DNA of 64,000 nucleotides, from the IMG/VR virus record IMGVR_UViG_3300046791_000499, positions 62,001 to 126,000 of that record, one strand, 5' to 3'. The notes beneath the pieces were generated by a model that was not told the origin of the DNA, did no database searches, and was given only the letters and a program-made list of their open reading frames with translations. The position numbers and the translations under genes are program-made. This stretch comes from a virus. Positions within the stretch are counted from its first letter, which is position 1. Each line of letters opens with the position of its first letter. Below, in pieces: positions 25,464 to 51,494 of this stretch.

Positions 25464-26840
25464 TCAGACGAGCGCGAACTCGGCTTCCACTCGCAGCGCC
25501 GCGAGCTTCGGGGTGATGGTGGCGGAGGCGAGGATGCGCCCGGTCGTCTTGAAGTCGCCGATCGAAAGTTCGGACGGCGGAAGCGTGGACAGATCGAGCG
25601 GCTCGTAGGTCACGGTGAAGTCGTCGCGGATGACACCAGCGGTGACCAGCGGGATCATGTCCTGGCTGATCTTGTCGCAGACGCTCTGCAGCCCGGCCTT
25701 GTCGAGATTGACGCCAGCGTTCGACTGCAAGATCAAGTCGACGGTCTGGCGGATCGTGTACCACCACCAATCCTCGGCGTGGACTTGGTAAATGAAATTG
25801 CCGCTGGAGACGTAGCCGCCGAGCGTGCGCAGGTCATCGGCCGGGCTGTAGAACCGCTCGGTGTATGACGTGAAGCGCTGGCGCATCGTCTGCGTCTGGC
25901 TGAGCGACCGAGCAGCGGTGATCGTCGTTTCGTCGCTGCCCTCCGTGACCAGGAAGTGCCAGGTCCGCGAGCCCGGGAACGCCCCGCCGACACGGCCAAC
26001 CCACGCGGCCGCCATGTAGTCGGTCGCCGTCGGGTGGCTCAGCAGGGCGGCACGCTTGTACTCGCCGTTGAACCAGTCCACCGCGATGTTGGTGGTGTCG
26101 CTGCCGTCGTAGACCCCGACGGTCGCGGTCTCGCCGATCATGACGTTGCGGCGGTTCACGACGTCGGCTCCCGCCCATCGGCGGCCTTCGTCGAGTTCGA
26201 CGTCGAGCGCACCTGGCATGAGAACGCCCCAGAAATTCGAGAGCGGGTAGGCGGCGTCGAGATCCTCGAACGCCCCGACGTTGGCCACCGTCTCCGTCAC
26301 GGTCGGAGCCGTACCGCCTGGTGCTGCCGACGTCGGCGTGAAGCCAACCCCTGGCACGTCGGCCGTGAGACTCAGCGTGTCGGTGTCTACGGAAGCAGCG
26401 GTGATCAGCGCGCCGTAGATGCCACCGTTGAAGGCGGCGACCAACCCGTCCTTGATCTGCGTCGTGGTCGAGCCGCTTGCGGCGAACGTCGCGGCGAGCG
26501 TCCCGTTGATGCTGACGGTGTGGTTGCCGTCGGTCGTGGAGATGATGTCCACGGTCCAGACGTTGGCGACCGGGTTCTCGCGCTTGATCAGGACGATCCG
26601 AGAAACGGCGGTGGCGGTCGGCTCCTGGCTGAATAGTTGGACCGCAGCGTTGAAGGCCGCGTCACCGGTGTCCCAGCCATCCTCCTCCATGAGCGCGGTC
26701 GACGAGTAGTCCGTCGTCTTCGCGGTGATGCCGGCAGGAACGGCGGGTGCCACAATCGCGAAGATCCGTGGGGTGTCCGGCGGTTCGGGTGGAACCTGAT
26801 TGAGCTGCGAATTGATTGCGATCCAGTCGATTGCGGGCAT
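25464..26840 (-). CDS. tail sheath protein (DUF3383-like), 458 aa
   Basis: A DUF3383-type contractile sheath. The N-terminal PAIDWIAINSQLNQVPPEPP, central FWGVLMPGALDVELDEGRRW, and C-terminal FIYQVHAEDWWWYTIRQTVD and DLSTLPPSELSIGDFKTTGR match the family. An Ig-like insertion at about residues 95-175 (NHTVSINGTLAATFAASGST, then TTQIKDGLVAAF) resembles a segment in the accessory gene at 51825-52898 and, more loosely, in the cement protein at 31475. Confidence 0.9.
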   Translation of the reverse strand: MPAIDWIAINSQLNQVPPEPPDTPRIFAIVAPAVPAGITAKTTDYSSTALMEEDGWDTGDAAFNAAVQLFSQEPTATAVSRIVLIKRENPVANVWTVDIISTTDGNHTVSINGTLAATFAASGSTTTQIKDGLVAAFNGGIYGALITAASVDTDTLSLTADVPGVGFTPTSAAPGGTAPTVTETVANVGAFEDLDAAYPLSNFWGVLMPGALDVELDEGRRWAGADVVNRRNVMIGETATVGVYDGSDTTNIAVDWFNGEYKRAALLSHPTATDYMAAAWVGRVGGAFPGSRTWHFLVTEGSDETTITAARSLSQTQTMRQRFTSYTERFYSPADDLRTLGGYVSSGNFIYQVHAEDWWWYTIRQTVDLILQSNAGVNLDKAGLQSVCDKISQDMIPLVTAGVIRDDFTVTYEPLDLSTLPPSELSIGDFKTTGRILASATITPKLAALRVEAEFALV

Positions 26841-30254: not shown

Positions 30255-31457
30255 TCACGCGGTGAAGTCGGCGTACAGGACTTGCTCGGGCAGCTTGGCG
30301 ATGACGCCACCGTGGCGCCGGAGCAGCACGTACGTCTGGTTGAGGTAGTCCTCGAAGGGTCCGAAGACCATGGACTCCATGTGCTCCACGTACAGGTTCT
30401 TGCGATCGTCGGTGTAGACGATCCAGCGCGTGGCGGTGCCGGCTTGGTTGCCGAGCATGAGGTTGTCGGAGAACATCGCCGCGGCGATCCACGGGTACTG
30501 CTCGACCGCGCGCTTCCACACGGAGTCGCCTTCGCCGTTGGCACCGAAGTAGGTGTTCTGCATCGCCAGCCGGTCGGCGTGCGGAATCACCGAGTGGGTC
30601 GGACGTCGGCCCTGGTTGCCCAACATGTAGCGGGCTTCGATGGCCGCGAGACGCTGCATCATCTGCACCGCGGTCGGGACCATCGACGAGAACTGCTGAC
30701 CGACCAGGAGCACCATGGCGCCGCTGATCGTGGCGAAGCCTTCGATGTTCTTGTCGGTCGAGCCCCACCAAGAGACGCGCTCGCGGAAGTCGTCGGCAGC
30801 CTCGACCGCCGCGTACTGTCGCTCGCCCTGGAGATCATCGCCGACGATCGCTGCTTCCCAGTCGTCGGGGAGACCCCAGGTGTACTTGCTGGCGTAGTAG
30901 GCCGCGCCGCGGATCTCCTTCTCGTCGGAGTAGTCCGAGTTCGGGACCTCGCGCAGCGCGTTGGGGTCGGCCCAAACGGCCTGCCCGGTGTGCTCGCGGA
31001 TCTTGAACGAGTTCGTCCGGTAGCCGGGCTTGAGCACGTTGCGGGACTGCAACGCCATGACCCGACCAGGACCCGGAACGAACAGCGTCGGCGCTTGCGG
31101 GCGCGTGATGTTCTCGCCGGGGCCACCGACCAACTCGAGCGAACTCGAGGTGAAGTCGGTCACGCCGTCGAACCGAGGATCGATCAACGGCGCAATGTGG
31201 CGCTTGATGATCGCCTTGGCCGCGTCCTGGACCTTCTCCAGCGGGGCGTCCGGCCATTTGCGTCGGAGTGCGGGGACGATCCGCTTCAAGGCCGCATCGC
31301 TGCTGTGCCCGATCTCGAGCCCGAAGCCCGAGTTTGAGAACCCTTGGAACTTGCCCGCCGAGTCGAGTCGGACGTCGTCGAACATGGAATCGTCGAAGAC
31401 GACCGCACGTCCGCCTGCCGCATCGAGCCGAGTGATGAATGGTAGATTGGCGCTCAT
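30255..31457 (-). CDS. major capsid protein (DUF2184-like), 400 aa
   Basis: An HK97-fold coat protein of the DUF2184 type: YRTNSFKIREHTGQAVWADP, YYASKYTWGLPDDWEAA, GSTDKNIEGFATISGA and WIVYTDDRKNLYVEHMESMV are in the expected order. Length and place after the cement gene agree. An AGGAG ribosome site lies 7 nt before the ATG at 31457, consistent with high expression. Confidence 0.88.
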   Translation of the reverse strand: MSANLPFITRLDAAGGRAVVFDDSMFDDVRLDSAGKFQGFSNSGFGLEIGHSSDAALKRIVPALRRKWPDAPLEKVQDAAKAIIKRHIAPLIDPRFDGVTDFTSSSLELVGGPGENITRPQAPTLFVPGPGRVMALQSRNVLKPGYRTNSFKIREHTGQAVWADPNALREVPNSDYSDEKEIRGAAYYASKYTWGLPDDWEAAIVGDDLQGERQYAAVEAADDFRERVSWWGSTDKNIEGFATISGAMVLLVGQQFSSMVPTAVQMMQRLAAIEARYMLGNQGRRPTHSVIPHADRLAMQNTYFGANGEGDSVWKRAVEQYPWIAAAMFSDNLMLGNQAGTATRWIVYTDDRKNLYVEHMESMVFGPFEDYLNQTYVLLRRHGGVIAKLPEQVLYADFTA

Positions 31458-31474: not shown

Positions 31475-32779
31475 TCAGACGTTGGGCGTGACCGGGACCG
31501 CGATACGAGCGCGACCGATGTGGGTGGAGGGGGCGATGAACATTTCACCGCGGGTGGTTCGGGTGTGGGTGCTGACCTCGGGGTTCGTCTCGACGAACGC
31601 GATGGTGCCGGGGCCCAGGTTGGTCACGGTCACGGCGCGGCCATCGGCGGGGCCGGTGAGCGTGATGGTCGAGGTGCCACCACCAGCAACGAGCCCCGTG
31701 AGCGTGGGCTTGAGTGCGAGGGCAGCTTTCAGGCCCGTGACGATCAGCGTGGCGGTCGTGCCGGCGCCGCTGGTGAAGCCAACGTGCTCGGTGACGGTGA
31801 CCCCCAGGTTGTTCACGACCGAGACCTGGAAGGCGTAGTCGGTTGCGTCGACCGCCGTTGGCGTTCCCGTCCACAGGTTCGCCGTGGCACCGACGGCGGC
31901 ACCAGCCGCATCCGTCACCATGCCGGCGAGGTAATCGCCCGCGTCGGTGTGTCGGACGTAGACGGCCTCGGGCCCGTTGCTCAGCGTGATCGCCTTCTCG
32001 CCGTAGGCCGAGATGTGCCCGTACTTGGCGTAGGGGATGTTCTGGCCGGACTTGTACTCGCGGTAGGCGAAGCCGGGCTCGACGGGCTGCGTGTCGGAGC
32101 CCCGGAAGATCGGACCGCGGAAGGTCGCGGCCGACATCGAAGACGTGATCTTGGTGAAGTAGGGGCGGCCCTCCTTGTCGTAGCCGGCGGTCCCCTTGCT
32201 CGTGTCGATCCCGTAGAAGAGACCAACCTTGATCGTGTCGGTGACCGGCGACGCGATGGAGGTCGCCGTGTAGCCATCGCCACCGACGGTGCTGGTGATC
32301 ACGGCCGAGAACGTCGCGCCTGGGACCCGAGCGGTGAGCCGCAACTTGGCCGCGCTCGCGCCGACCGAGGCGACCACGTAGGAGGCGATGTTGCCACCCG
32401 TGTAGGCCCCCGCGATGGTCGTGATCGCAGCGTTGATCGCCTCGATCAATCCGAGCACGGTGTCCGCGGCGGTGTCCGCCGTCGCTACGAACGAGGTGCT
32501 CGCGGGCGCCATCGCATGCGCCGCGGCCGAGGTCCCCGATTGAGTCGTCAGCATCGTGACCGTGACGGTCCACGTTGCCGAAGACGCGAAGGTCCCCGTC
32601 AGTTCGTAGTCGGTGACCTGAACGACCTGTGGGTAGTGGGCAGTCCCGACATCGTTGATCGAGGTGTCGAAGAAACACCCCGGCTCGATGATGGTCTCAT
32701 CCGGGTTGGTGACGCCGTCCGTCTTGAGGAACGGGATGTCGAGATTGTTGGTGAACGGGAACAGGGGTGGAAGTGACAT
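31475..32779 (-). CDS. structural cement protein (Gp24-like) with extra beta domains, 434 aa
   Basis: The central FYGIDTSKGTAGYDKEGRPYF, YREYKSGQNIPYAKYGHISA and EAVYVRHTDAG fit the Gp24-like cement proteins that decorate this type of capsid. Two beta-rich inserts (about 65-160 and 300-390, for example FVATADTAADTVLGLIEAIN) are unusual and make it more than twice the normal length. Similar Thr/Ala-rich beta segments occur in the sheath. Confidence 0.75.
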   Translation of the reverse strand: MSLPPLFPFTNNLDIPFLKTDGVTNPDETIIEPGCFFDTSINDVGTAHYPQVVQVTDYELTGTFASSATWTVTVTMLTTQSGTSAAAHAMAPASTSFVATADTAADTVLGLIEAINAAITTIAGAYTGGNIASYVVASVGASAAKLRLTARVPGATFSAVITSTVGGDGYTATSIASPVTDTIKVGLFYGIDTSKGTAGYDKEGRPYFTKITSSMSAATFRGPIFRGSDTQPVEPGFAYREYKSGQNIPYAKYGHISAYGEKAITLSNGPEAVYVRHTDAGDYLAGMVTDAAGAAVGATANLWTGTPTAVDATDYAFQVSVVNNLGVTVTEHVGFTSGAGTTATLIVTGLKAALALKPTLTGLVAGGGTSTITLTGPADGRAVTVTNLGPGTIAFVETNPEVSTHTRTTRGEMFIAPSTHIGRARIAVPVTPNV

Positions 32780-32782
32780 GGA

Positions 32783-33742
32783 TCAGGCCGCTCCGTGGGG
32801 CTGGGTTGGGGGCGCGCCGACGGGCAACGCCGTGTACTGGTTGCGAACTTGCTGGGCCTTGGCCAGCGGGTCGTCGTCCTGCCGGGTGGCATCGGTCACG
32901 GCATTCGCGGCGCGCAGGCGCTCGACGGATGCAAGGGCTTCGGTGCCCTTGTGGTCACGCCGGTCGAGCATCTCGCGTGCATCGGCCAGTCGCTCTCGCA
33001 CGGCGTAGGAACGGGCCTCGGGGGTCGGAGCCGCATCGATCCGCTTGATGATCGCCTCGGCCTTGTCGCCGTAGGCTTCTCGGATCGCCGCCATCTCCCA
33101 ATCCACGATCGAGAGCGGGAGAGGTTCGCCGGAGGCTGCATCCTTGCGGGGCTCGGGCGTGTACTCGTTGCCTCGGCAGCGAGCCACGAGAGCCATCGAC
33201 TCGGCGATGTGGAGAGCTTGGGCGTTGACCATCCCGAGCGCGTCGGCATGCGAGACCATCTTGGACATCGCGTCGGAGCGCTCGGTCAGCGTGGTCTTGG
33301 CGGCGGCCAATGCCTGCTCGGTCTTGGCGAGGTCGTGCTCGGCCTTATCGGCGCGCTTGCCTGCGCGGTCGGTCCGACCCTCGAGCATGGCTACGTACTC
33401 GGCGACGGCGAGCGGGACCTGGTACTCGGCCTCGCCGACCACCAACGTGGCGAGGTCGCCAGCAACAACGGGGACCTGGACCTCCTCGTTCGCAGCGACA
33501 ACGGCTGGTGCGCCTGCATCCGTCGTCGGCATTGCCGGAGGCACAGGGGGAGCAGCCGCGGCCGGAGCCTTGGGCGCGTCGGGGAACGCCATGCCGAGCG
33601 CGTTGATCTGGTCGGGCGTGAGATCCTCCTCCGACTCCATGAACTTCGCCATGTCTTCGGGCTTGATGCCGATCGCGGTGGCGATGACGTCTTCGGTCAG
33701 GCCGAGCGCCATCGCGGCGGGGATGAGTTTCTTCTTGAGCAT
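32783..33742 (-). CDS. possible nested scaffold protein by internal initiation, 319 aa
   Basis: Within the polyprotein, an in-frame ATG at 33742 (codon 812, MLKKKLIPAAMALGL) begins the scaffold-like part. AGGA lies 10 nt upstream. A separate scaffold made from an internal start inside the protease gene is known from lambda (C/Nu3). The content is a helix-rich Ala/Pro N-terminus, then a long coiled coil (ADKAEHDLAKTEQALAAAKT) as expected for a scaffold. Confidence 0.5.
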   Translation of the reverse strand: MLKKKLIPAAMALGLTEDVIATAIGIKPEDMAKFMESEEDLTPDQINALGMAFPDAPKAPAAAAPPVPPAMPTTDAGAPAVVAANEEVQVPVVAGDLATLVVGEAEYQVPLAVAEYVAMLEGRTDRAGKRADKAEHDLAKTEQALAAAKTTLTERSDAMSKMVSHADALGMVNAQALHIAESMALVARCRGNEYTPEPRKDAASGEPLPLSIVDWEMAAIREAYGDKAEAIIKRIDAAPTPEARSYAVRERLADAREMLDRRDHKGTEALASVERLRAANAVTDATRQDDDPLAKAQQVRNQYTALPVGAPPTQPHGAA

Positions 33743-36175
33743 GACGACAGAGTCCTGTTGTTGGGTGGGAGGGGCAGGCCGCTTGGCGCTGGCAGAGTCG
33801 AACCGGGTCCAAGAAGGAGGGTCGAAGAACACCGGTTGCACTGGCGGTCTCGCCGAGAGCGCGAGAGCAATGAGTTCGTCGGCGCTGTGCACCCGGATGC
33901 CGGCCGCGTCGGCGCGACCGGTCAGCACCTTGGCCGTGATGGCTGCGCCGTGCGGTTCGCTGGCGAGGCTGTTCCAGGTGATGTTGTCGATCCATTGATC
34001 GAAGGGCCGACCGTAGTCGTCGGTGCCTGGTCCGCGATGGACGCGGCAGCCGTAGGCGACGGAGACCTCGGGCGCCATCGGCTTCTGACCGTTGACCCCT
34101 TCGATCGCGTAACGCAGGGCGGCGTCCCATGCCTTGGCCCACCCGAAGGTGTGAAGTCCATCGTGGTACTCGTCGACCGTGAGCACGACCCCGCGCGCAG
34201 CTCCGAGAACCGTCGACGGGGTGAGCAGGTCGGAACTGTGCCGCAGTTCCCACGGCGAGCCGATGCCCGAGTCCATGGAGGCCCGGTCGAACACGGACTT
34301 GCGCGGCCGGAACTCGCGAATGCCGTTGTAGACCTGGATGTTGTCGGCACGCGAGTACAGCACCGGGTAGGTGACCCAGCCGTAGGGATGGATGATCGGC
34401 GTGCAGTCGGCCGCCATCTCGACGCGGTCGGCTCGGACGATGTCGAAGCTGTTGGTGCGGCTCTCGACGTGGATGGCCGGCGCGTTGCCGGTGGCCAGGA
34501 TCCCCGCGAGAGCACCAGCCATCCCGAGCGCCGAAGCACCGGCAGCGGTTCCGCCGAACTTGATCGCAGCACCGGGGCGCACGTCGATGGTGATGGCGCC
34601 CGCTGCATCCATGGAGATGCGGGTCTCAGCGCCGGGCTTGCCGATCAGCACGCTGCCGTCAGCGCCCACACCGAACAACGCCTGCTGCCCTGGCGCGGCA
34701 TCCTTCGCTGCCTTGGCAGCTTCGATCTGGCGGAGTCGCTCTCGAGCCTCGGCCTCGGTGTCGTAGGGGCCGAGTTCTTTGTACCCGTCCGCTGAGAGCA
34801 CGACCCACTTGCCGTTCCGTTCCTCGATCCGGTCGTAGTGCTCAGCACCGTCGAAGACGTACCGCTCGCCTGCGCGCCAGATCTCGATGGAATCGACCGG
34901 CCAGGATCCAGTCGGGACGGTGCCGGTCCAGTCGGTTCCGGGCTCGATGTAGCCGAGGGTGGCGTGGGGCTTCCATGACTCGCCGAGTCGAGAGACGTCG
35001 AGGCCAGCGGAGGCGAGCGCTTGGGCGAGCGCGCCTTGGGCAGCCACGCAGACGGGGGCAACGTCGACAGCGCAGTGAGCCACGCGCATGTCGTTGTCGA
35101 AGTAGGAGAGCGGTCCGAGGTTGACCTGCGAGCCCAGCATGGTCGGTGCCACAGCCCGGACGGCCTCCATGGCTGCGGCCAGTTGTTCCTCGCTGGTGTG
35201 CTTGACGTAGACGCAGGTGACGTGGGGAGCACCGACCTCGGCGTCCTCGGGGAATTGCGCAGCGATGGCGGCTGGGATCGGCAGAACGACGCAGAGCGAG
35301 TCGGCCGCGAAGTCTTGGCGTGCCATCGGCAGCACTTCGACCCGCATGACATCGACGGGGCCGAATACTACGACCTCGCGCTCGGTGGCGATCGCATTGC
35401 GCAGCGGCTCGTTCCAGATCGGGTGGACCTGGTCAGCGATGGCCGAGATCTTGGCGATGGCGTCAGCATCGAGCAGGAGCGCGTCCGGGGACACGCTGCC
35501 GTGCATGATTGCACCGACCTTGGCGTTGTTGATGTCGCCGGTCGGGATGTAGTCCCCGCTCGAGAACTTGGTCGCCTGCTCGAGCGACGTGGTCCAGGAC
35601 TTGTCGCGAGTCGCGTCTGACTCGCCAACGAGCTTCCCGGCGATGCTCGGCGAGATGTTCGACAGGCCGCGGTAGATGCGGTCGGTCTCGGGCGCGCGCA
35701 GGTATGGGTACTTATCGCGCAGCCCGAGCAGCACTTGGATGCGCGGCTGCGAGAGCTTTTGCCCGTGCGAGTAGTGCTCGACCAGCCACCCGTGGATCGT
35801 CGCTTCATCTGGCTCGCCGTCCTGCCGAGCGTTGAAGTCGTCGAGCAGCCCCTTGGCTGCCTTGGTCGCTCGCTCGCGAACATCGGCCGGCACGTCGAGC
35901 GGGGTGCCCTGACCAAGCCGGCTCAGCGCTGCACGCAGGGCAGCCGCGTTGATGACCATCTCGCCGTCGACGATGTCGCCAACCGGCATGTGGAGATCGC
36001 CCTTGAGCTTGGTCGACGGGTCCGCGATCAGGTAGGCGGCGGAGACCTTGTCGAAGTCGAGTTCGCCTGCAGCGTTGGATGCCCACGCGAACAGGCGCTT
36101 TTCGGCCGCGCCGCTGTCCCAAGGCTGGTCGATGATCTGGGCCTTGGTGTTGAGCGTGATGCGGAAGTCAGCCAC
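32783..36175 (-). CDS. ADP-ribosyltransferase / 2H phosphoesterase / prohead protease / scaffold polyprotein, 1130 aa
   Basis: One uninterrupted frame. The GTG at 36175 is set by a strong GGAGG five to six nt upstream. Domains in order: an unassigned N-terminus; a mono-ADP-ribosyltransferase domain at about 165-280 with Y168-R169-G170, a Ser-Thr-Ser-like SWTTS (193-197) and an ExE motif at E265/E267; a 2H phosphoesterase at about 290-440 with H318-V-T320 and H404-A-T406; a short WVVLSADG linker domain (456-490); a DUF2213-like prohead protease region at about 570-765 (EVSVAYGC, ITWNSLA); and a coiled-coil scaffold from about 810. The protease should release the parts during capsid maturation and may leave the enzymatic domains inside the head. 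Enzyme activities are inferred from motifs. Confidence 0.8.
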   Translation of the reverse strand: MADFRITLNTKAQIIDQPWDSGAAEKRLFAWASNAAGELDFDKVSAAYLIADPSTKLKGDLHMPVGDIVDGEMVINAAALRAALSRLGQGTPLDVPADVRERATKAAKGLLDDFNARQDGEPDEATIHGWLVEHYSHGQKLSQPRIQVLLGLRDKYPYLRAPETDRIYRGLSNISPSIAGKLVGESDATRDKSWTTSLEQATKFSSGDYIPTGDINNAKVGAIMHGSVSPDALLLDADAIAKISAIADQVHPIWNEPLRNAIATEREVVVFGPVDVMRVEVLPMARQDFAADSLCVVLPIPAAIAAQFPEDAEVGAPHVTCVYVKHTSEEQLAAAMEAVRAVAPTMLGSQVNLGPLSYFDNDMRVAHCAVDVAPVCVAAQGALAQALASAGLDVSRLGESWKPHATLGYIEPGTDWTGTVPTGSWPVDSIEIWRAGERYVFDGAEHYDRIEERNGKWVVLSADGYKELGPYDTEAEARERLRQIEAAKAAKDAAPGQQALFGVGADGSVLIGKPGAETRISMDAAGAITIDVRPGAAIKFGGTAAGASALGMAGALAGILATGNAPAIHVESRTNSFDIVRADRVEMAADCTPIIHPYGWVTYPVLYSRADNIQVYNGIREFRPRKSVFDRASMDSGIGSPWELRHSSDLLTPSTVLGAARGVVLTVDEYHDGLHTFGWAKAWDAALRYAIEGVNGQKPMAPEVSVAYGCRVHRGPGTDDYGRPFDQWIDNITWNSLASEPHGAAITAKVLTGRADAAGIRVHSADELIALALSARPPVQPVFFDPPSWTRFDSASAKRPAPPTQQQDSVVMLKKKLIPAAMALGLTEDVIATAIGIKPEDMAKFMESEEDLTPDQINALGMAFPDAPKAPAAAAPPVPPAMPTTDAGAPAVVAANEEVQVPVVAGDLATLVVGEAEYQVPLAVAEYVAMLEGRTDRAGKRADKAEHDLAKTEQALAAAKTTLTERSDAMSKMVSHADALGMVNAQALHIAESMALVARCRGNEYTPEPRKDAASGEPLPLSIVDWEMAAIREAYGDKAEAIIKRIDAAPTPEARSYAVRERLADAREMLDRRDHKGTEALASVERLRAANAVTDATRQDDDPLAKAQQVRNQYTALPVGAPPTQPHGAA

Positions 36176-36335
36176 GGCGGACCTCCGTCGCGGTGTTGCA
36201 CTTCGGGCATGCGTCGGCAGGGAAGTCGGGGTGCAGTTCGCAGCGGAGTGCGGGCGCAACAACACCGACGCGACCGCCACTATCTCGGCGCGTCTGCCAT
36301 TCGCCTGCGTTTTGCTGGGGACCCGAATCGACCAC
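36168..36335 (-). CDS. small zinc-binding protein before the polyprotein gene, 55 aa
   Basis: Reading from the GTG at 36335 gives a protein-like sequence ending RCELHPDFPADACPKCNTAT. It has Cys31, His34, Cys43 and Cys46, as in a zinc knuckle. It is short and ends 8 nt inside the polyprotein gene, so it probably couples to it; the ribosome site of the polyprotein lies within this gene. It would be the first gene of the structural operon. Confidence 0.5.
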   Translation of the reverse strand: MVDSGPQQNAGEWQTRRDSGGRVGVVAPALRCELHPDFPADACPKCNTATEVRRG

Positions 36336-36778: not shown

Positions 36779-38173
36779 TCATGGGTTCCGGCTCCGGGTG
36801 TGTTCGAGCGCAAACGCCTGGATGTTGGCCACGATGCGCTGGCGAAAGTCGCCGTCGCGCTCGTCTGGGTTTCGCGTCAGCCCGCGAACCTGCCCGATGC
36901 CGTCGAGCGCCTGGCCCGTGGCGCGAGGCACCACGATCACCTGGGTTCGACGTGTTCGGAATAGCCGAGCCTCGGCATGCTCGATCTCGCCGCGACGCCA
37001 GCGTGGAAGTTGCAGCCATTCGCGCCTCTCGTGCTCGCGATGAGGCCGTGCCGAGATGCGCTCATCCAGGCTCGGGCGGTCGGCCGCTGGCATCGTGACC
37101 AGGAACTCGGGTCCGCAGTACAGGCTATCGGCGTACTCGCGGTGCTTGCCTCGGTCGACCACCCGGGTCGCAGGGCCTCCGAAGCGGGCATGCTCGCCGG
37201 GGATTGGGATCGTGTCGACCAGGTCGGAGAGATCCCGATCTTCGTCGTACAGCCTCCGGGTCCACTCGCTGCGGCTGCGATCGTCTCGGGCACTCGGCGT
37301 TCGTTGCGAGTCGGCCACAACAACCGCCACGGCCGTCGACCATGTGATCTTCGGCAGCACTCCGGTGAGATTGTGCCCCGTACCTCGGCACGTCGGGCAC
37401 CGACCGCGGATCGATTCACCCACGGCAGCCTCGCGCGGCTGGCCGTCCTCACCGATGATCGTCAGCCCAGGAACCGCAACCACCGAGATGCGGGTGTGCG
37501 GTGTGATCGCCAGGCCCGGTCCCGTCTCGCCGATCCCATCGCATCCGAGGCAGTCGCTGGGCTGGCCCTCGAGCGCCTCGAGCAGCAGTCGGCCGAGATG
37601 GGCGATGGCCTTGCCATTGGCGACGCCGGGCGGGATGCCGTGCTTGCGGGTGAATCCGCGACCCTTGCAGGCGGTGCAACGCCGACTCCAGACCTCGGTC
37701 GGCTCCTCACCATCATCCGTCGGAAAAGTGCCGCCGGTTTGCTCCCAGCCTTCGAGGGCGAACGTAGCGTGGGCAATGGCACGAGTGACCCCGTGCTGCT
37801 TCTCTTCGTACCCATTCCCCTTGCACTCCTTGCATCGCTCCCACCCGTACTCGCTAGCGAGCGGACCTGGCCAACCACCTGCCTGTGGGAAGCGAAGGGG
37901 ATGCGGAGTCTCGAACGCGGCCCCGTCTTCGATGTACGACTGCGCCGCATCGAGGCATCCGCTCCGAGTCAGGTGCACCGTCGTGGCGACCACGGATCCG
38001 TACGTCGCGCCGATCTTCCACTTGGTCTGCCATCGCCTGCCAGCATCTCCGATCGTGACGTGCTCGAGCGTGATCGTAGCGCATGCCTCCGCGATCAGCC
38101 GAGCGACCTGCATCCGGTTGCGGCGCAGCCTCATGGTCTTGGATTGCTTCGCCTGTCCCACTACAACCAGCAC
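36779..38173 (-). CDS. DnaJ-type zinc-finger accessory protein with J-like C-terminal motif, 464 aa
   Basis: Four CxxCxGxG-type repeats as in the DnaJ cysteine-rich domain: CKECKGNG at 114, CTACKGRG at 166, CLGCDGIG at 208 and CPTCRGTG at 259. There is no J domain. The C-terminal segment (ATGQALDGIGQVRGLTRNPD, then ERDGDFRQRI, about 415-445) has the pattern seen in baseplate J and DUF2612 proteins. The function is unknown; zinc-mediated protein or nucleic-acid binding is likely. The ATG at 38173 overlaps the end of the upstream gene; one at 38134 is also possible. Confidence 0.6.
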   Translation of the reverse strand: MLVVVGQAKQSKTMRLRRNRMQVARLIAEACATITLEHVTIGDAGRRWQTKWKIGATYGSVVATTVHLTRSGCLDAAQSYIEDGAAFETPHPLRFPQAGGWPGPLASEYGWERCKECKGNGYEEKQHGVTRAIAHATFALEGWEQTGGTFPTDDGEEPTEVWSRRCTACKGRGFTRKHGIPPGVANGKAIAHLGRLLLEALEGQPSDCLGCDGIGETGPGLAITPHTRISVVAVPGLTIIGEDGQPREAAVGESIRGRCPTCRGTGHNLTGVLPKITWSTAVAVVVADSQRTPSARDDRSRSEWTRRLYDEDRDLSDLVDTIPIPGEHARFGGPATRVVDRGKHREYADSLYCGPEFLVTMPAADRPSLDERISARPHREHERREWLQLPRWRRGEIEHAEARLFRTRRTQVIVVPRATGQALDGIGQVRGLTRNPDERDGDFRQRIVANIQAFALEHTRSRNP

Positions 38174-38379
38174 TCCACGATCACGGGATCGTCAGTGGTG
38201 GAACGCGAAACACAGATGTGGCCGCTCGGGACTGCCAGTCGGGCCGCCTGGAGATCATCGACCACGGCGAGCGGTACTTGGTCGGGCTTCTCGCCAACCC
38301 AGCGCCTCACCACGAACTTGTCGGGGTAGTCCTTGGGGTTGTCGTAGATCGCGTAGAATTCACCAACCGTCACCGTCAT
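38161..38379 (-). CDS. hypothetical protein, 72 aa
   Basis: A small alpha/beta protein (VTVGEFYAIYDNPKDYPDKF, then DDLQAARLAVPSGHICV). The ATG at 38379 overlaps the upstream stop. No family recognised. Confidence 0.6.
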   Translation of the reverse strand: MTVTVGEFYAIYDNPKDYPDKFVVRRWVGEKPDQVPLAVVDDLQAARLAVPSGHICVSRSTTDDPVIVECWL

Positions 38380-39137
38380 GGGCTTGTGCTCTCCTCGGCC
38401 TTGGCCGGCGTAATCATGTCGAGCGTCGGGCTGACCTCGTGGAAGCCGTGGAACGAGACGATGTCGAGCACCACGTACTCGGACGACCGCTCGCCCAAGC
38501 GGTTCCACGTCGCACACCGCTCATCCCATTCGAGATCGCTGATCTGGTCGGGTTTGTCCGTATTGTTCCAATAGCCGTACTCCTCGAGCCCGGTGTACTC
38601 ACGGAGGAAGTCGAGCACGCCGCCCATGAGGCTGGCGCCGTCGCAGTAGGGGATCAGGTAGTACCGGCCACCGAGTTCGCGGATGGCGACCGAGACGCCG
38701 AGGTTCCACTTGCTGCGCTGGAAACTGCTCAACTGCGCGCCGTACTTCTGCGTGACCCAGGGGTCGACATCGAGCACGTCCAGCGGGCGAGCATCGTAGC
38801 CATCGCCGTGGAGGTCAGCGAGGATCTGCGCGTTGACGACCGACACCCGCGAGACCGGCTTGACCCCGATGCGCTTCTCAGCGGACCGCATGTACATGCT
38901 CACCGATACGACCCGATCGCTCGTGTCCTTGGTCTCCTCACGCCAGACCTCGAAGTCAGCATTTGCTCGCATGAACCATGTGGACAGCGCCTCTGCTCGC
39001 CCTTCGATGATGTCGCGGTAGACCTCGGCTAGCCGAGCACGAGCAGCGGTTTGGCCCTCGCGCTTGATCGTGAACAGGATCGGCCAGAGCGGGAAGCCCT
39101 CGCGGACGCGGTACGCCTCGTAGATTTTGGTGCTCAT
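38376..39137 (-). CDS. conserved phage protein of unknown function, 253 aa
   Basis: The protein begins MSTKIYEAYRVREG and contains VSVAIRELGGRYYLIPYCDG and EYGYWNNTDKPDQISDLEWD, patterns I recall from uncharacterised phage and myxobacterial proteins. No catalytic motif can be named. The ATG at 39137 overlaps the upstream stop by 4 nt. Confidence 0.6.
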   Translation of the reverse strand: MSTKIYEAYRVREGFPLWPILFTIKREGQTAARARLAEVYRDIIEGRAEALSTWFMRANADFEVWREETKDTSDRVVSVSMYMRSAEKRIGVKPVSRVSVVNAQILADLHGDGYDARPLDVLDVDPWVTQKYGAQLSSFQRSKWNLGVSVAIRELGGRYYLIPYCDGASLMGGVLDFLREYTGLEEYGYWNNTDKPDQISDLEWDERCATWNRLGERSSEYVVLDIVSFHGFHEVSPTLDMITPAKAEESTSP

Positions 39138-39409
39138 CGTGTCTTTCGTTTCTTGCGAACGCTGCCGTAGGTCATGCGGAACCCATCGTCGGTCAGGTTG
39201 AAGGCCCGCGGATTTCCGGGCTCGACCACGGCCAACCCCATGCCGACCAGTTCGGTCCACTCGGTGAAGTCGTCCGAGTCCGTCTCTGCGCAGTAGTAGT
39301 TGCGGTGGCCTCGGAGCATGCCGCCGGTGGCGTAGCGCATCATGTCGAGATGTCGTTGCGTGACCTTCGGCGTGTACCGGATCGGATCAGGTGGGGCGTG
39401 GTTGGTCAC
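39134..39409 (-). CDS. small conserved phage protein, 91 aa
   Basis: The pattern HLDMMRYATGGMLRGHRNYY followed by TEWTELVGMGLAVVEPG and FNLTDDGFRM resembles a small winged-helix-like phage protein: 'new helix, then hairpin with strand-strand'. DNA binding is possible. The C-terminus is basic (SVRKKRKTR). Confidence 0.55.
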   Translation of the reverse strand: MTNHAPPDPIRYTPKVTQRHLDMMRYATGGMLRGHRNYYCAETDSDDFTEWTELVGMGLAVVEPGNPRAFNLTDDGFRMTYGSVRKKRKTR

Positions 39410-45774: not shown

Positions 45775-45891
45775 CTACCACGGTTCCTCATGGGGCTTGC
45801 GCATGATCTTGTGCATGACCGAGCCTCCGACCACGGCGGCCTCGAAATCGCTGACGCCGTGATCGCACCAACTGCACTTTGCCCTGTTCAT
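45775..45891 (-). CDS. very small CxxC protein, 38 aa
   Basis: MNRAKCSWCDHGVSDFEAAV followed by VGGSVMHKIM and a short basic tail. CSWCDH is a zinc-knuckle-like motif. Its ATG overlaps the stop of the RNase gene as ATGA, which supports it. Confidence 0.5.
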   Translation of the reverse strand: MNRAKCSWCDHGVSDFEAAVVGGSVMHKIMRKPHEEPW

Positions 45892-47720
45892 GGCTGGTCC
45901 TCTCCATCGTCCGCTGGCGACGCGAGCCCACACCCGAGCGCGAGCACGCGGACACACGCACGCTGCTTGGCTACCTTCGCCGAAGAGGCGACGACCCATT
46001 TGGTGGCGAACGTCTCCCCGTTGGCTCGGACCGCGGCCTTGACCGCATGGACCAGCGCATGCTCGGGCCCGCGGCGGTCGGTCTCGTAGTCGATGCCGCT
46101 CCATCCCGCCATCTGCCGACAGAGCATCGCCACCGACACAGCCAGGTGCGGGTTCTCGGCAAGGTAGCTGACGACGGCCTGGCGAAGTCCGGCCCAGGCC
46201 GCGACCTCGGGCGTTTGCATCGGCTCGATCAAGACCGTGAACAGGTCGAGGATCGGCGCGGAGCCGGTCCCCATGCGGCGCTTGAACTCGCGGGCGAACG
46301 CGTCGTTGTAGGAGCCAGACCGCGCGAGCACCTTGGCCACGCGCTCGAACGCCTTCACCGGCAGCGCTGCATAGTCCTCCGTCCGAATGTTCTCCTCCGC
46401 GCGCGCCGTCGCCTGCGTTCGGCCGACATGACTGGCGCGCTCTCGAAGGGCCTCCGTCCGCGCGTTGATGTGGTCGCAGATCCGCGCGATATCCTCGTGG
46501 CTGTAGGGGAGCGCATCGCCTCGGATCCACGCGGTCAACTGCCGCTGGGTCACGAGGTCCGCGAGGCGTCGGATCGGTGACGTGCAATGTAGGTACCCCG
46601 GCAGGTTCAGGCCGAAGTGTCCACGCAGCCGCGACCCGTACTCGGCGCGGTTCATGGACATGTGGGCGTGCAGCCGTAGCAATTCCACGCCCGCGAGCGG
46701 CGTGGCGAGAGCAGCGTTGATCTGGCTCATGAGATCGGCGCGGTCGGGCGCGTGGATCTTGGCCGTGTGGTTGCGCCACGGCACCGGGATCTCGTGCTCG
46801 GCGCACAGCCTGGCGACCTCGGCGTTGGCCAGGATCATCATCTCCTGCACGATGATGTGGCCGATCGTCTCGCGGGTGTCTTTGAGGCGATGCAGCGCGC
46901 CGTCCTCGGTCGTGACCCAGCCAGTGTTCAAGTCGTAGAACACGAGCGCTCCCCGAGCCCGCCGCTTGTCCATGAGCGCGGAGGCCAAGACGGACATCGT
47001 CTCCATCGGCTGGTGAAACTCATGCGCCATGTCGGCGAGCACGGCGGGGATCTCCGTGTAGGCGAAGCGCTTGCGGCTGGTGAACACCACGCGCTTGACC
47101 TCGGGCAACGCCAGCGGCTCGAGCCCATGATCGAGCAGCATGACGATCCGCATGCCCTGCCGGCGCTCGCCCTCGAGCAGCGACGCCTTGGCCTCGACCT
47201 CCCGGCTGAGCATGGGATGGGTCATGCCATTGGGGAGGTAGCGCGTCTCGACTCGCTCGACCGCGGCGTCGTCCATGCGTGTGCCGATGCCGACGCGGTA
47301 CGCGACGTCGGCGATCGTGACCGTGATCTTCCAGCGTCCGTCCGCGTGCTCGGCCCACACAGCGTCGTCGAGATCCTGCGAATGGCTTGCGTCGATCGTA
47401 ACGCCTTTGTCCGTCTTCGTCATGGCTGGTCCTCTTTGATCCTCGGGGAAGGTCATCGCGCACGGGCTCGAGCACGCGGGGCACATGTCTCCATCGACCT
47501 CGCTCTTGATCACGTGCCGAGAGACGTGGCCTTGCGTGCACCGAACCGTGAACTGGTCGTACCAACGGTCGGGCATCCCCATGAACATGCGGCCCCCTGC
47601 CTCGCGCTCGCGAGCGGCAGCGGCATCCCGGCGAGCCACGAGGGCGGCGATCTCCGCGTCGATCGATGAAGCCGCCGGAGGCTCGAACGCCTTGGGGTCG
47701 ATCGGATCGAAGGTGATCAC
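45888..47720 (-). CDS. RNase II/R-like exoribonuclease with N-terminal zinc domain and C-terminal dsRBD-like domain, 610 aa
   Basis: Residues 100-500 are an RNB catalytic domain: the acidic metal site is seen in DASHSQDLDDAVW (about 111-123) and the conserved CTSPIRRLADLVTQRQLTAW near residues 385-405. The enzyme should degrade RNA 3' to 5'. Residues about 555-605 (PEHALVHAVKAAV, TKWVVASSAKVAKQRACVRV) resemble a double-stranded RNA-binding domain. Residues 1-99 carry VRCTQGHVSRH and CPACSSPC, normally a separate small zinc protein. The frame is continuous; a strong AGAGGA before the ATG at 47423 may give the 511-residue RNase alone. The outer start is GTG at 47720, overlapping the upstream stop. 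Confidence 0.78.
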   Translation of the reverse strand: MITFDPIDPKAFEPPAASSIDAEIAALVARRDAAAAREREAGGRMFMGMPDRWYDQFTVRCTQGHVSRHVIKSEVDGDMCPACSSPCAMTFPEDQRGPAMTKTDKGVTIDASHSQDLDDAVWAEHADGRWKITVTIADVAYRVGIGTRMDDAAVERVETRYLPNGMTHPMLSREVEAKASLLEGERRQGMRIVMLLDHGLEPLALPEVKRVVFTSRKRFAYTEIPAVLADMAHEFHQPMETMSVLASALMDKRRARGALVFYDLNTGWVTTEDGALHRLKDTRETIGHIIVQEMMILANAEVARLCAEHEIPVPWRNHTAKIHAPDRADLMSQINAALATPLAGVELLRLHAHMSMNRAEYGSRLRGHFGLNLPGYLHCTSPIRRLADLVTQRQLTAWIRGDALPYSHEDIARICDHINARTEALRERASHVGRTQATARAEENIRTEDYAALPVKAFERVAKVLARSGSYNDAFAREFKRRMGTGSAPILDLFTVLIEPMQTPEVAAWAGLRQAVVSYLAENPHLAVSVAMLCRQMAGWSGIDYETDRRGPEHALVHAVKAAVRANGETFATKWVVASSAKVAKQRACVRVLALGCGLASPADDGEDQP

Positions 47721-48091
47721 AGGGTCAACTCCATGTGCTCGACTGCGCGCTTGGTGATCTGGACGCCGAGCTGCCCGTCGATGTCGACCCACTCGAGCCA
47801 GTTGCTGCGGATCGTCTCGAGCAGCCGACTGCCCCGGGAGGTCTCCTTGAACACGACCATGCGGGTGCTGTGCGGCGCGCTCGCGGAGACGTCGTCGAGG
47901 TTCCACCCGTCCATGACGATCTCGCCAGTACGGACAGGACGCCAGGTCTCGCCGCATGCCTTGGCCACGGCGAGTAGGACCATCTCGGTGTCGCGGTGGC
48001 CGGTGAGGCTGTGGGCTCCCGAGCGGATGAGCCGGGCTGGGGTGATGGTGCAGGTGTTCGTATCCATGGGGTTTAGTTGTTGCTCGCTCAT
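47717..48091 (-). CDS. hypothetical protein, 124 aa
   Basis: Contains RTGEIVMDGWNLDDVSASAP and MVVFKETSRGSRLLETIRSN. No family recognised. ATG starts at 48091 and 48067 are both possible. The stop overlaps the GTG of the RNase fusion gene. Confidence 0.55.
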   Translation of the reverse strand: MSEQQLNPMDTNTCTITPARLIRSGAHSLTGHRDTEMVLLAVAKACGETWRPVRTGEIVMDGWNLDDVSASAPHSTRMVVFKETSRGSRLLETIRSNWLEWVDIDGQLGVQITKRAVEHMELTL

Positions 48092-48093
48092 GG

Positions 48094-48525
48094 TCACCCA
48101 AACAGCCAATCCGAGATCACGGCGGTCGCTACGAGAGCGAAGATGAGCGTCCCGAACGGACCCCAACCCCACACGCCAGCGCCGAGCACCCCGAAGGTCA
48201 TGAACGTGACGAGACGGAGACCGCTGCGAGCGGGGCTGGACCTCTTGGCGACGGCCGTGGTCGCGGTGGCACGCATTTCGGTACGCTGCCCGTTGGAGAC
48301 CGAGACGACCTCGGCCTCGATCGTGCCCGGCGGTTCGGGCTCGCGGGTGTTGGTCGGCACGTACGGCGAGCGCGGATCTGGTCGGAACACTGGGACCTGC
48401 GTGATCGTGTAGCCATCGTTCGGAGCGCGACCGCGCTGCAGGCGTTCTTTGAGTTCGGTCAGATCCGGGGGCGCGGGCCGACGCGGATCTCGTGGGGTTC
48501 GTGGCGGACGGTCAGACCTGGCCAT
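48094..48525 (-). CDS. membrane protein with Pro-rich N-terminus, 143 aa
   Basis: Residues 1-95 are Pro/Arg-rich and probably disordered. The C-terminal 40 residues form two close hydrophobic stretches (LRLVTFMTFGVLGAGVWGWG and FGTLIFALVATAVISDWLFG). The ATG at 48525 overlaps the end of the next upstream gene by 14 nt. Confidence 0.55.
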   Translation of the reverse strand: MARSDRPPRTPRDPRRPAPPDLTELKERLQRGRAPNDGYTITQVPVFRPDPRSPYVPTNTREPEPPGTIEAEVVSVSNGQRTEMRATATTAVAKRSSPARSGLRLVTFMTFGVLGAGVWGWGPFGTLIFALVATAVISDWLFG

Positions 48526-49065: not shown

Positions 49066-49200
49066 CCAGCGATGCTGGATGGTTGAACCTTCGCACCGCA
49101 GCCGGCGGCATGCTGCTCAGGGAGAGCCTGAGAGGACTTCTCGGTTGGTTCATCTGGTTCATGAAACACCGTCGGCTGCGGTAGCCTTGCGTGCTCAGCT

Positions 49201-49228
49201 TTCAGAGCAGACGCCAATGCGGTAGGCT
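49201..49228 (+). promoter_or_regulatory. promoter-like TTCAGA-N16-TAGGCT before the portal gene
   Basis: A weak -35-like TTCAGA (49201-49206) and -10-like TAGGCT (49223-49228) end 7 nt before the GTG at 49236. The same TAGGCT appears at the same place before the Panacea gene. It would give a nearly leaderless portal transcript. Confidence 0.35.
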
Positions 49229-49235
49229 ATCCCGC

Positions 49236-51494
49236 GTGCGCGACGCTCGGCAGGATGGACTCGTCAATGCGGTCACCGGTCTCGGGGACGACGAGATCGA
49301 CCTCCGGCTGCACACCCACCGGATCCCGTCGTATCAGCGATCGGTCTACGAGTACGAGTCGGAGTGGCGCGACAACGCCTACGCCCAACGCGAGGTCAGC
49401 CAGGTTTCTGGCGACATCTTCCGCGAGGGGCTCGACCTCATCAACGTCAAACCCGAAGCGATCGACATCGGCGCTCTCAAGAGCTGGCTCGAGGGGGACA
49501 CTACTCCCAACCCCGACGGATCGATCAACCGCACGGAGGGCCTGCTCAATTACGCAGAAAAGCTCATCGAGCAGGGTGACAAGGTCGGCGGGGCTGCCCT
49601 CTACGTGATCGTCGACGACGGCTTGGATCCCGTCCACCCGCTCGACTGGCGCCGGATCCAGCGGGTCGTCGCCTGGGTCGTCCTCGATCGGTCCGAGATC
49701 GTGCCCTACATCTCCGAGGGCATGGGCATGGAGCCCGAGTATTGGATGCTTTCCGACGTGCTCTCGACCGCGAAGGTCCAGGGCGGCAAACGGCAAGCGC
49801 TGCGGCCCGGTCAGGTCATCCATCACACCCGGCTTTGGCGACACAAGGGGATCCCGCTGAGCGCCCGCGAGGAACGACTCCGGCAGTTCTGGGGCGGGTC
49901 CGTGCTCGAGGTCAACTGGGATGCCCGCCGCGCGATCGAGGAGGGGACCACCTACGCGAACACCTACCTCCATCGCGCCAGCATGATCCACGTGTCGCTC
50001 GCCGAACTGAACGAGATCTACGGGGCCAAGGATCCAGAGACTGGACAGGAGATCGGGACCGAAGTCATCGACCGGCGCATGCGGCAGTTCCGGCGCATTG
50101 CCTCGACCTTGGACATCATGCTGACCGATGGCGGCCGGCAGGGGTCGAAGTCGTCTGACGGGCTCACGGAAATCCAAGGCCGCAACCCGGACAAGGTCGA
50201 GAGCGTCGTCGAACGCACCGGTGATCTGATCCCGATCGTCGAGTTGAACCGGACCCAATGGCAGAGCGGCTGGGGGGCCCCGCGCGAGATCGCATTCGGC
50301 GAGCAAACGAGCGCCCTGCGTGGTGGCGACAGCAAAGGGGCTTGGCAGTCCTGGCAAGGTACGATCGATCTCAAGCGCAAGAAGAAGCGCGTCATCGGCT
50401 TGGTCAACTGGATGCTGACGATCACGTTCGCCTCCCGCGAGGGCCCGACGCACGGCTTGATTCCCACGCAATGGGAGCAGCAATGGCGCCCGCTTCATGT
50501 CCCGTCGGCGATGGAGAAGGCCACGATCGACAAGGCCCGTGCCGACGCCGACAACGCCAGGATCGGGACGCAGGTGGTCACGGCCGAAGAGGTCCGGCAG
50601 CAGCGGATCGTCAACGGCGACGTCGAAGGTCAGCTCACCGTCACCGAAGTGCCGAACTCCGAGAAGGTCACGATCGTCCCGCCAGCTCATGTCGGTATCG
50701 CCAAGGCGATGCTCGACGGTGCGATGGCCGTTGCGACTGGCCAGATCACCAAGGAGTTCTACGCCCGGTACCTGCTGGCGATCGACGGCGCGCGGTTCAC
50801 CGAAGAGGAGGCCAATCGCATCGCCGATCAGGCGGCGGCTGGGATCGTTCCGGGAGCGGCGGCGGCCGAGGTCACCACCGACTCGGCGTCTCCCGTTACC
50901 GCGGCCACCGTCATGGCTTCGGGGGGCCAGGTTGCGCAGGGCAAGATGGCCCCGGAGTTCTTCGAAGAGGCGCTGCAGACCCTCGACCCCGAGCAGTTCG
51001 ATCCCGAGACGGCAGCTCGGCTGCGCGCGGCAGCGGAAGGGAACGATCCTGACGCGCCCGCGCTCCCGCCCGACGCCCCGCTGGTCGCCCCAGTTGGAGC
51101 AGCCACGGCAGTCGCACCAGCCCTGCCGACGACCGACGCCGCGACGCCCGAGGGTCAGCCATCGCCCGCCCCAGCCGCGCCCATCGAGCCCAAGGCCAAC
51201 CCCTTCGCCGTACTCGCCGAGATCCCCGACGATCTCATGACACCCGAGCAGATCGTGGCGGAGATCAAGCTACGCACGCCGCTCCCGATCACCACTCGCC
51301 ACGTCCATGCGATCGCCAAGAAGCACGCGGTCAGGCGCGGGAAGATCAGCGGGGTCACGGGGTACTCGGCCGGCGACGTCGCCACCGCGCTCGCTCGCGA
51401 CAACGGGCTACTCCCGCCGGCTGCCGAAGTCGACGAACCCGTGGTCGATGAGTCGCTGGTCGATGGTGGCGAGCCAGAGCCCCTGGTCGAGTAG
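49236..51494 (+). CDS. portal protein (DUF1073-like), 752 aa
   Basis: The N-terminal RQDGLVNAVTGLG, GLDLINVKPEAIDIGALKSW, AALYVIVDDG and the central FWGGSVLEVNWDARRAIEEG, KGAWQSWQGTIDLKRKKKRV fit DUF1073 phage portals. The dodecameric portal forms the DNA entry vertex. After an Ala/Pro-rich linker (about 590-665) there is an extra C-terminal domain (MTPEQIVAEIKLRTPLPITT, then GKISGVTGYSAGDVATALAR) that looks like a small helical DNA- or protein-binding module. It lies on the opposite strand to the capsid genes, which is unusual. GTG at 49191 is an alternative start. Confidence 0.85.
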   Translation: MRDARQDGLVNAVTGLGDDEIDLRLHTHRIPSYQRSVYEYESEWRDNAYAQREVSQVSGDIFREGLDLINVKPEAIDIGALKSWLEGDTTPNPDGSINRTEGLLNYAEKLIEQGDKVGGAALYVIVDDGLDPVHPLDWRRIQRVVAWVVLDRSEIVPYISEGMGMEPEYWMLSDVLSTAKVQGGKRQALRPGQVIHHTRLWRHKGIPLSAREERLRQFWGGSVLEVNWDARRAIEEGTTYANTYLHRASMIHVSLAELNEIYGAKDPETGQEIGTEVIDRRMRQFRRIASTLDIMLTDGGRQGSKSSDGLTEIQGRNPDKVESVVERTGDLIPIVELNRTQWQSGWGAPREIAFGEQTSALRGGDSKGAWQSWQGTIDLKRKKKRVIGLVNWMLTITFASREGPTHGLIPTQWEQQWRPLHVPSAMEKATIDKARADADNARIGTQVVTAEEVRQQRIVNGDVEGQLTVTEVPNSEKVTIVPPAHVGIAKAMLDGAMAVATGQITKEFYARYLLAIDGARFTEEEANRIADQAAAGIVPGAAAAEVTTDSASPVTAATVMASGGQVAQGKMAPEFFEEALQTLDPEQFDPETAARLRAAAEGNDPDAPALPPDAPLVAPVGAATAVAPALPTTDAATPEGQPSPAPAAPIEPKANPFAVLAEIPDDLMTPEQIVAEIKLRTPLPITTRHVHAIAKKHAVRRGKISGVTGYSAGDVATALARDNGLLPPAAEVDEPVVDESLVDGGEPEPLVE

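What the first reader, a model, noticed from the sequence alone, without database searches (positions are those of the whole stretch)
32783..36175. Virion-type polyprotein joining ADP-ribosyltransferase, 2H phosphoesterase, prohead protease and scaffold
Seen: one open frame of 1130 codons with a strong ribosome site, an ART-like YRG / SWTTS / ExE set (residues 168-170, 193-197, 265-267), two HxT motifs (318-320, 404-406), a DUF2213-like region and a coiled-coil end. Known: phages deliver ART enzymes in capsids (T4 Alt), and Acb1, a 2H-fold enzyme, cleaves the cyclic nucleotides of CBASS. Inference: the protease may cut the two enzymes free inside the prohead so that they are injected with the DNA, giving host modification plus a possible anti-defence or ADP-ribose-processing activity. 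I do not know of this exact fusion.
Basis: partly seen in the sequence, partly recalled or inferred. Interest (0 to 1): 0.82.

Follow-up and report, generated by a model that had tools for sequence, protein, structure and literature searches.

The report
Phage head-protease polyprotein carrying two enzymes
One large late protein of an uncharacterised contractile-tailed phage joins a real RNA/nucleotide-cleaving enzyme and a probable protein-modifying enzyme to the phage's own capsid-maturation protease and scaffold; this is an unusual combination, but of a kind (enzymes built into capsid proteins for delivery with the DNA) that is already described.

Summary
The frame is real. It lies on the minus strand (GTG at 36175, stop at 32783; 1130 codons, good ribosome site, one coding frame throughout), upstream of the major capsid gene of a 143-kb contractile-tailed phage. 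The 2H phosphoesterase domain is firm (Pfam above cut-off; AlphaFold model pLDDT 87.5 matching LigT/2'-5' phosphodiesterases), but it is not an Acb1: the Acb1 profile does not match and the fold is nearer LigT and viral 2'-5' phosphodiesterases. The DUF2213 head-maturation protease is supported, with catalytic His and Ser kept and a third conserved His changed to Ser. The ADP-ribosyltransferase rests on its motif triad alone: no profile, tblastn or profile-profile support, and its structure prediction failed. A ~40-residue module that precedes DUF2213 in other phages sits between 2H and protease, so the enzymes look grafted onto a protease-scaffold gene. Enzymes fused to phage head proteins, and polyvalent proteins ending in an assemblin-like peptidase, are published. 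I found an ART-2H tandem in a Gordonia phage structural protein, and 2H inside a Microbacterium capsid morphogenesis polyprotein. No relative with this exact order was found. Verdict: a new variant of a known kind, moderate interest.

The parts
32783..36175 (-). whole polyprotein gene, 1130 aa, GTG start, stop at 32783-32785
36181..36186 (-). Shine-Dalgarno-like GGAGGT, 5 nt before the GTG
   Evidence: sequence
35819..36121 (-). residues 19-119: N-terminal module shared with the MuF-type head polyprotein PIS_022 of Saccharomonospora phage PIS 136
   Evidence: tblastn 31% E=0.04, phmmer E=9e-10 in the small local set; PIS_022 head assignments
35306..35713 (-). residues 155-290: putative ADP-ribosyltransferase domain (YRG168, SWTTS193, E265xE267); motif evidence only
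   Evidence: no profile support
34856..35290 (-). residues 296-440: 2H phosphoesterase domain (HVT 318, HAT 404)
   Evidence: PF13563; alignment A5 invariant columns all kept; AlphaFold + Foldseek
34706..34834 (-). residues 448-490: small 'GKWVVLS...LRQIE' module found before DUF2213 proteases, after a portal and after some Acb1 proteins
34451..34705 (-). residues 491-575: Gly/Ala-rich linker with short beta-like repeats and a hydrophobic stretch; possible site of processing (inference)
   Evidence: sequence
33947..34441 (-). residues 579-743: DUF2213 head-maturation protease; His646 and Ser705 conserved, third conserved His replaced by Ser (NSLAS, 735-736)
   Evidence: phrog_530 1.9e-9, PF09979, alignment A4, positions
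32786..33463 (-). residues 905-1130: scaffold-like C-terminal part, coiled-coil periodicity about 936-978, after a Pro/Ala-rich linker
31475..32779 (-). next gene, 434 aa, in the decoration-protein position (no family match)
30255..31457 (-). major capsid protein gene (phrog_264, E=4e-15)
49191..51494 (+). portal protein gene (PF06381, the DUF1073 type that accompanies a DUF2213 protease in Jedunavirus), opposite strand
   Evidence: Jedunavirus order
25464..26840 (-). tail sheath gene (contractile tail)

Best explanation
A prohead-protease polyprotein with effector enzymes grafted onto its N-terminal side: a polyvalent head protein. SHOWN: one coding frame holding, in order, a head-protein module, an ART-like motif set, a 2H phosphoesterase, the small 'GKWVV' module, a DUF2213 protease and a scaffold-like coiled coil, in the capsid gene block of a contractile-tailed phage. 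INFERRED: it is made late and enters the prohead through its protease-scaffold end; the protease matures the head and cuts between the modules (probably in the 491-575 linker and the Pro/Ala linker near 870-900); the enzyme part stays inside with the DNA and is ejected on infection. There the 2H enzyme, most like LigT/2'-5' phosphodiesterases, would hydrolyse a 2'-5' or 2',3'-cyclic phosphate substrate (an RNA end or a defence nucleotide), and the ART, if real, would modify host protein by the arginine-type R-S-E mechanism.
For: Single frame, start and coding pattern. 2H profile and fold. Protease family, His646/Ser705, and no S78, ClpP or second phrog_530 protease in the record. In L019 and in Skatevirus L059 the same small module stands directly before DUF2213, so residues 448-1130 look like an ordinary protease-scaffold gene with the enzymes added in front. 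Capsid, sheath and portal neighbours; no MuF protein found in the record that would otherwise carry effectors. Parallels: Gordonia phage GMA2 gp10, a structural protein, has ART (hhalign 90%, E=1.4e-6) followed by 2H; Microbacterium phage OneinaGillian gp22 has MuF and 2H inside a capsid morphogenesis protein, and that cluster fuses MuF to the maturation protease (PMC7302621); virus contig L047 has 2H and ART-PolyVal in one chain. Published kind: 2H and ART fused to MuF/portal, assemblin-like peptidase at the C-terminus of polyvalent proteins (PMC5512222, PMC9503650).
Against: The ART has no support beyond motifs, and fails against the phage VIP2-like ART profile. The third conserved His of the DUF2213 relatives is Ser here, so protease activity is not certain. 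No relative with the same order was found, so conservation of the fusion could not be tested. Packaging, cleavage and injection are untested. Scaffold and protease fragments commonly leave the head at maturation, so the enzymes might be lost rather than injected.
Confidence: 0.55

Rival explanations
1. The 2H domain is an RNA-end or tRNA-repair enzyme (2',3'-cyclic phosphodiesterase, LigT/ThpR-like) that restores RNAs cut by host anticodon nucleases, not an anti-signalling enzyme.
For: Nearest solved relatives by profile and fold are archaeal and bacterial 2',3'-CPDases and E. coli LigT. Sister 2H domains from virus contigs are fused to the poly(A) polymerase/CCA-adding head domain in L033, L038, L042, L044.
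Against: PMC5512222 reports that 2H domains of polyvalent proteins are never seen with RNA ligases and favours RNase or 2'-5' oligonucleotide hydrolysis. Other sisters sit with topoisomerase IB, pyrophosphatase or ART domains.
Confidence: 0.35
2. Anti-CBASS (Acb1-like) function: the 2H domain cleaves cyclic di- or trinucleotides of CBASS on entry.
For: Full-length tblastn best hits are T4-type Acb1 (57B) proteins of RB43/KP27-like phages; two HxT motifs; Foldseek does reach Acb1 (7t27, E=4e-3) and the poxvirus cGAMP phosphodiesterase (E=8e-5).
Against: That sequence match covers only residues 399-488 and is carried largely by the small module plus the second HxT; with the 2H region alone there is no match. 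PF23474 (Acb1) does not match while the control does at 3.6e-47. Profile E for Acb1 0.33 against 5e-8 for LigT-type.
Confidence: 0.15
3. Residues 155-290 are not an ART; the motifs are chance or belong to another fold, so only the 2H enzyme is carried.
For: No profile, structure or homolog support; AlphaFold failed.
Against: Triad in R-S-E order, ExE followed by a hydrophobic strand-like stretch, 5 in 200,000 shuffles; GMA2 gp10 has the same ART-then-2H order with a profile-supported ART; ARTs are a very divergent superfamily, so failure of a single-sequence search is weak evidence.
Confidence: 0.3
4. The enzyme part is a passive or assembly-stage piece: degraded or expelled with the scaffold, with no role after injection.
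For: Scaffold-protease products normally leave the maturing head (general knowledge of tailed-phage assembly).
Against: The 2H catalytic residues and all 11 invariant columns of its family are kept, as expected of a selected enzyme; enzymes on head proteins recur widely (PMC9503650).
Confidence: 0.2

Closest known systems
Polyvalent proteins with a C-terminal assemblin-like peptidase (Iyer et al. 2017, PMC5512222)
   Same: Effector enzymes and a capsid-type serine peptidase in one phage chain, peptidase after the effectors, head gene context
   Different: Here the peptidase is the DUF2213 type, is followed by a scaffold-like tail and lies in the capsid block; the ART+2H pair with it is not described in what I read
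2H or ART fused to MuF/portal (PMC9503650; Percival gp4 ART-MuF, PMC7302621)
   Same: Same enzyme classes on head proteins, proposed to be packaged and injected
   Different: No MuF found in this phage; the carrier is the maturation protease. The ART does not match Percival-type ARTs
Gordonia phage GMA2 gp10
   Same: ART followed by 2H in one structural protein
   Different: No protease or scaffold recognised in it; no detectable sequence similarity to this protein
Microbacterium phage OneinaGillian gp22
   Same: 2H inside a capsid morphogenesis polyprotein of the MuF + maturation-protease type (PMC7302621)
   Different: MuF present, no ART seen, different order
T4-type Acb1 (gene 57B) of RB43/KP27-like phages
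   Same: 2H superfamily; shares the 'GKWVV' module at its C-terminus
   Different: Stand-alone protein, different 2H family
T4 Alt
   Same: Idea of a head-packaged ART (PMC5512222)
   Different: Separate protein; no sequence relation shown here

Membership tests
2H phosphoesterase superfamily (PF13563) | Profile match, two HxT motifs, 2H fold | tested here: met
Acb1 anti-CBASS family (PF23474) | Match to the Acb1 profile | tested here: not met
   no match; control (KMI7 57B) 3.6e-47
Acb1 anti-CBASS family (PF23474) | Cleavage of CBASS cyclic oligonucleotides | not testable with these tools
   needs a biochemical assay
ADP-ribosyltransferase superfamily (R-S-E class) | Aromatic-R-G, S-x-T, ExE triad in order | tested here: met
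ADP-ribosyltransferase superfamily (R-S-E class) | Match to an ART profile | tested here: not met
ADP-ribosyltransferase superfamily (R-S-E class) | ART fold | tested here: inconclusive
   AlphaFold single sequence pLDDT 31.5
DUF2213 head-maturation protease (phrog_530/PF09979) | Profile match | tested here: met
   phrog_530 1.9e-9; PF09979 21.1 bits against cut-off 22
DUF2213 head-maturation protease (phrog_530/PF09979) | Conserved His, Ser and second His | tested here: inconclusive
   His646 and Ser705 kept; the N-H or D-H of four relatives is N-S here
Polyvalent head protein with capsid-type peptidase | Several effector domains plus peptidase in one chain in head gene context | tested here: met
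   (the second effector, the ART, on motifs only)
Polyvalent head protein with capsid-type peptidase | Packaged in the virion and injected | not testable with these tools
   needs virion proteomics

The most novel reading that the evidence does not exclude
A self-processing delivery cassette: the phage's maturation protease itself carries an ART and a 2H phosphodiesterase and releases them inside the prohead at maturation, so that dose, timing and packaging of two host-takeover enzymes are tied to capsid assembly. ART and 2H travel together repeatedly (here, GMA2 gp10, L047) because their activities are coupled, for example modification by ADP-ribose plus removal of a nucleotide alarm.
Probability: 0.3. 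Interest if true: 0.65.

Novelty: new variant of a known kind. Interest (0 to 1): 0.42.

Why it matters
If true, it shows capsid maturation proteases, not only MuF and portal proteins, used as carriers for injected enzymes, gives a simple test (virion proteomics and cleavage mapping), and adds a LigT/2'-5'-phosphodiesterase-like 2H enzyme, different from Acb1, to the set of possible virion-borne counter-defence enzymes. The recurring ART-2H pairing on phage proteins is itself worth a survey.

Tried and rejected
(1) Close relatives of the polyprotein, its ART, its protease and the capsid protein in IMG/VR: none; genome-contig scans with the 2H alignments A3 and A5 found none, and A4 was too divergent to search with. 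(2) ART by Pfam, PHROGs, PDB and tblastn at E up to 10: nothing; PF03496 absent from the record and from 28 other records. (3) AlphaFold of the ART from one sequence: useless model, not searched. (4) A5 against A1 by hhalign shares the query itself, so its high score is ignored. (5) Frameshift or two-gene artefact: rejected by codon-position GC. (6) Acb1 membership: rejected. (7) Arthrobacter phages annotated 'capsid maturation protease and VIP2-like ART' looked like an exact precedent; YesChef gp4 is a full-length relative of Percival gp4, whose N-terminal part is the MuF-like VG15 family, so I do not count them as shown protease fusions. (8) Window 38376-39260 and 36779-38173, just upstream, show no head-protein family that would explain the N-terminal part. 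(9) I did not make altered ART sequences to widen the pattern search.
Full report
WHAT IS THERE. The window is bases 62001-126000 of a 143,093-base virus record. The finding lies on the minus strand: GTG at 36175, stop at 32783, 1130 residues, with GGAGGT five bases before the start. GC content by codon position keeps the same coding pattern (third position 0.77-0.89, second 0.41-0.59) in every 90-codon window from end to end, so there is no sign that a sequencing error joined two genes.

SURROUNDINGS. Downstream on the same strand follow a 434-aa gene in the decoration-protein position, the major capsid protein (phrog_264), neck and connector proteins, a tail sheath and a tape measure, so this is a contractile-tailed phage. 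The portal (PF06381) is at 49191-51494 on the other strand and the terminase lies about 50 kb away in the record. No MuF protein, no S78 or ClpP protease and no second phrog_530 protease were found in the record.

DOMAINS. Residues 19-119 resemble a stretch of the MuF-type head polyprotein PIS_022 of Saccharomonospora phage PIS 136 (tblastn E=0.04; E=9e-10 in the small local set). Residues 296-440 are a 2H phosphoesterase: PF13563 above its cut-off, and all 11 invariant columns of an 18-member family from virus contigs are kept. An AlphaFold model from that alignment (mean pLDDT 87.5) matches drCPDase, E. coli LigT, viral RNase L antagonists, rotavirus VP3, poxvirus cGAMP phosphodiesterase and, lower, Acb1. 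Profile search of the PDB gives the same order: archaeal 2'-5' RNA ligase-like proteins at 5e-8 and a 2',3'-cyclic phosphodiesterase at 3e-7, Acb1 at 0.33. Residues 579-743 are a DUF2213 head-maturation protease; His646 and Ser705 align with invariant residues, while the N-H or D-H pair of the four relatives aligned is N-S here. Residues 905-1010 show heptad periodicity.

THE SMALL MODULE. Residues 448-490 (IEERNGKWVVLS...LRQIE) form a roving module: at the N-terminal side of DUF2213 proteins in L019 and Skatevirus PJN025, at the C-terminus of a portal-like protein (L015), inside a prohead-protease-like protein (L017), at the C-terminus of Acb1 (57B) proteins of RB43/KP27-like phages, and as 54-66 aa stand-alone genes. 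It explains why whole-protein tblastn pointed to Acb1: the 2H region alone has no such match. Because the module stands directly before DUF2213 in other phages, residues 448-1130 look like an ordinary protease-scaffold gene, and the enzymes look like an addition in front.

THE ART. The triad is in the right order and rare by chance (5 of 200,000 shuffles), and the ExE is followed by a hydrophobic strand-like segment. Nothing else supports it: no profile, PDB or tblastn match, a failed single-sequence model, and no hhalign match to a profile of six phage ARTs, although that profile does recognise the ART of Gordonia phage GMA2 gp10 (90%, 1.4e-6). I put about 0.65-0.7 on the ART being real, mostly on motif grounds and on the GMA2 parallel.

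HOW IT PROBABLY WORKS. See Best explanation: the chain is delivered to the prohead by its scaffold-protease end, cut there, and the enzymes go in with the DNA. Shown: architecture, gene context, 2H fold, protease family. Inferred: packaging, cleavage, injection, substrates. The 2H enzyme is more likely a 2'-5' or 2',3'-cyclic phosphodiesterase than an Acb1-type nuclease; sisters fused to CCA-adding/poly(A) polymerase domains keep an RNA-repair role open.

PRIOR ART. PMC5512222 defines polyvalent proteins, reports 2H fused to MuF or portal, and states that assemblin-like peptidases occur at the C-terminus of such proteins with a likely role in virion processing. PMC9503650 reports ART and 2H fusions to MuF/portal and Nudix fusions to the capsid serine peptidase. 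PMC7302621 reports a MuF-VIP2 fusion and a MuF-maturation protease fusion in Microbacterium phages. From data here: GMA2 gp10 carries ART then 2H; OneinaGillian gp22 carries MuF and 2H; L047 carries 2H and ART-PolyVal. The exact order module-ART-2H-module-DUF2213-scaffold was not found elsewhere, within searches that see close relatives only.

VERDICT. Real, well observed, partly over-read (Acb1) and partly unproven (ART, cleavage, injection). A new variant of a known kind.

Noticed in passing
residues 448-490 (window 34706-34834); L003, L015, L017, L019, L058, L059, L060: A ~40-aa module (GKWVVLS...LRQIE) recurs on portals, head proteases and, unexpectedly, at the C-terminus of Acb1 of RB43/KP27-like phages, and as tiny stand-alone genes; it could be a head- or assembly-targeting tag, which would make those Acb1 proteins candidate virion proteins.
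   Followed up: partly
L068:7981-10632 (Gordonia phage GMA2 gp10): Structural protein with a profile-supported ART followed by a 2H domain; annotated only as putative structural protein.
   Followed up: partly
L033, L038, L042, L044 (2H ORFs): 2H domains fused to the poly(A) polymerase/CCA-adding head domain in large virus proteins, in L042 also with topoisomerase IB and PAP2.
   Followed up: partly
L038:5164-9057 and L010:4735-9111: Inteins inserted in the poly(A) polymerase-like domain of the 2H-containing proteins (Pfam intein match in L038; seen by eye in L010).
   Followed up: no
window 45888-48101 (-): Phage-encoded RNase II/R-like exoribonuclease (phrog_13933 nuclease, 8e-45), 737 aa.
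   Followed up: no
window 36779-38173 (-): Gene just upstream of the polyprotein with paired CxxCxGxG-type motifs (DnaJ zinc-finger-like, below cut-off).
   Followed up: no
window 60502-62289 (-): HerA/FtsK-like ATPase (PF01935) with a weak terminase-family match, separate from the real terminase.
   Followed up: no
L071 (Arthrobacter phage YesChef gp4) and relatives: Annotated 'capsid maturation protease and VIP2-like ADP-ribosyltransferase', but it is a full-length relative of the MuF/VG15-like Percival gp4; the protease label looks doubtful.
   Followed up: partly
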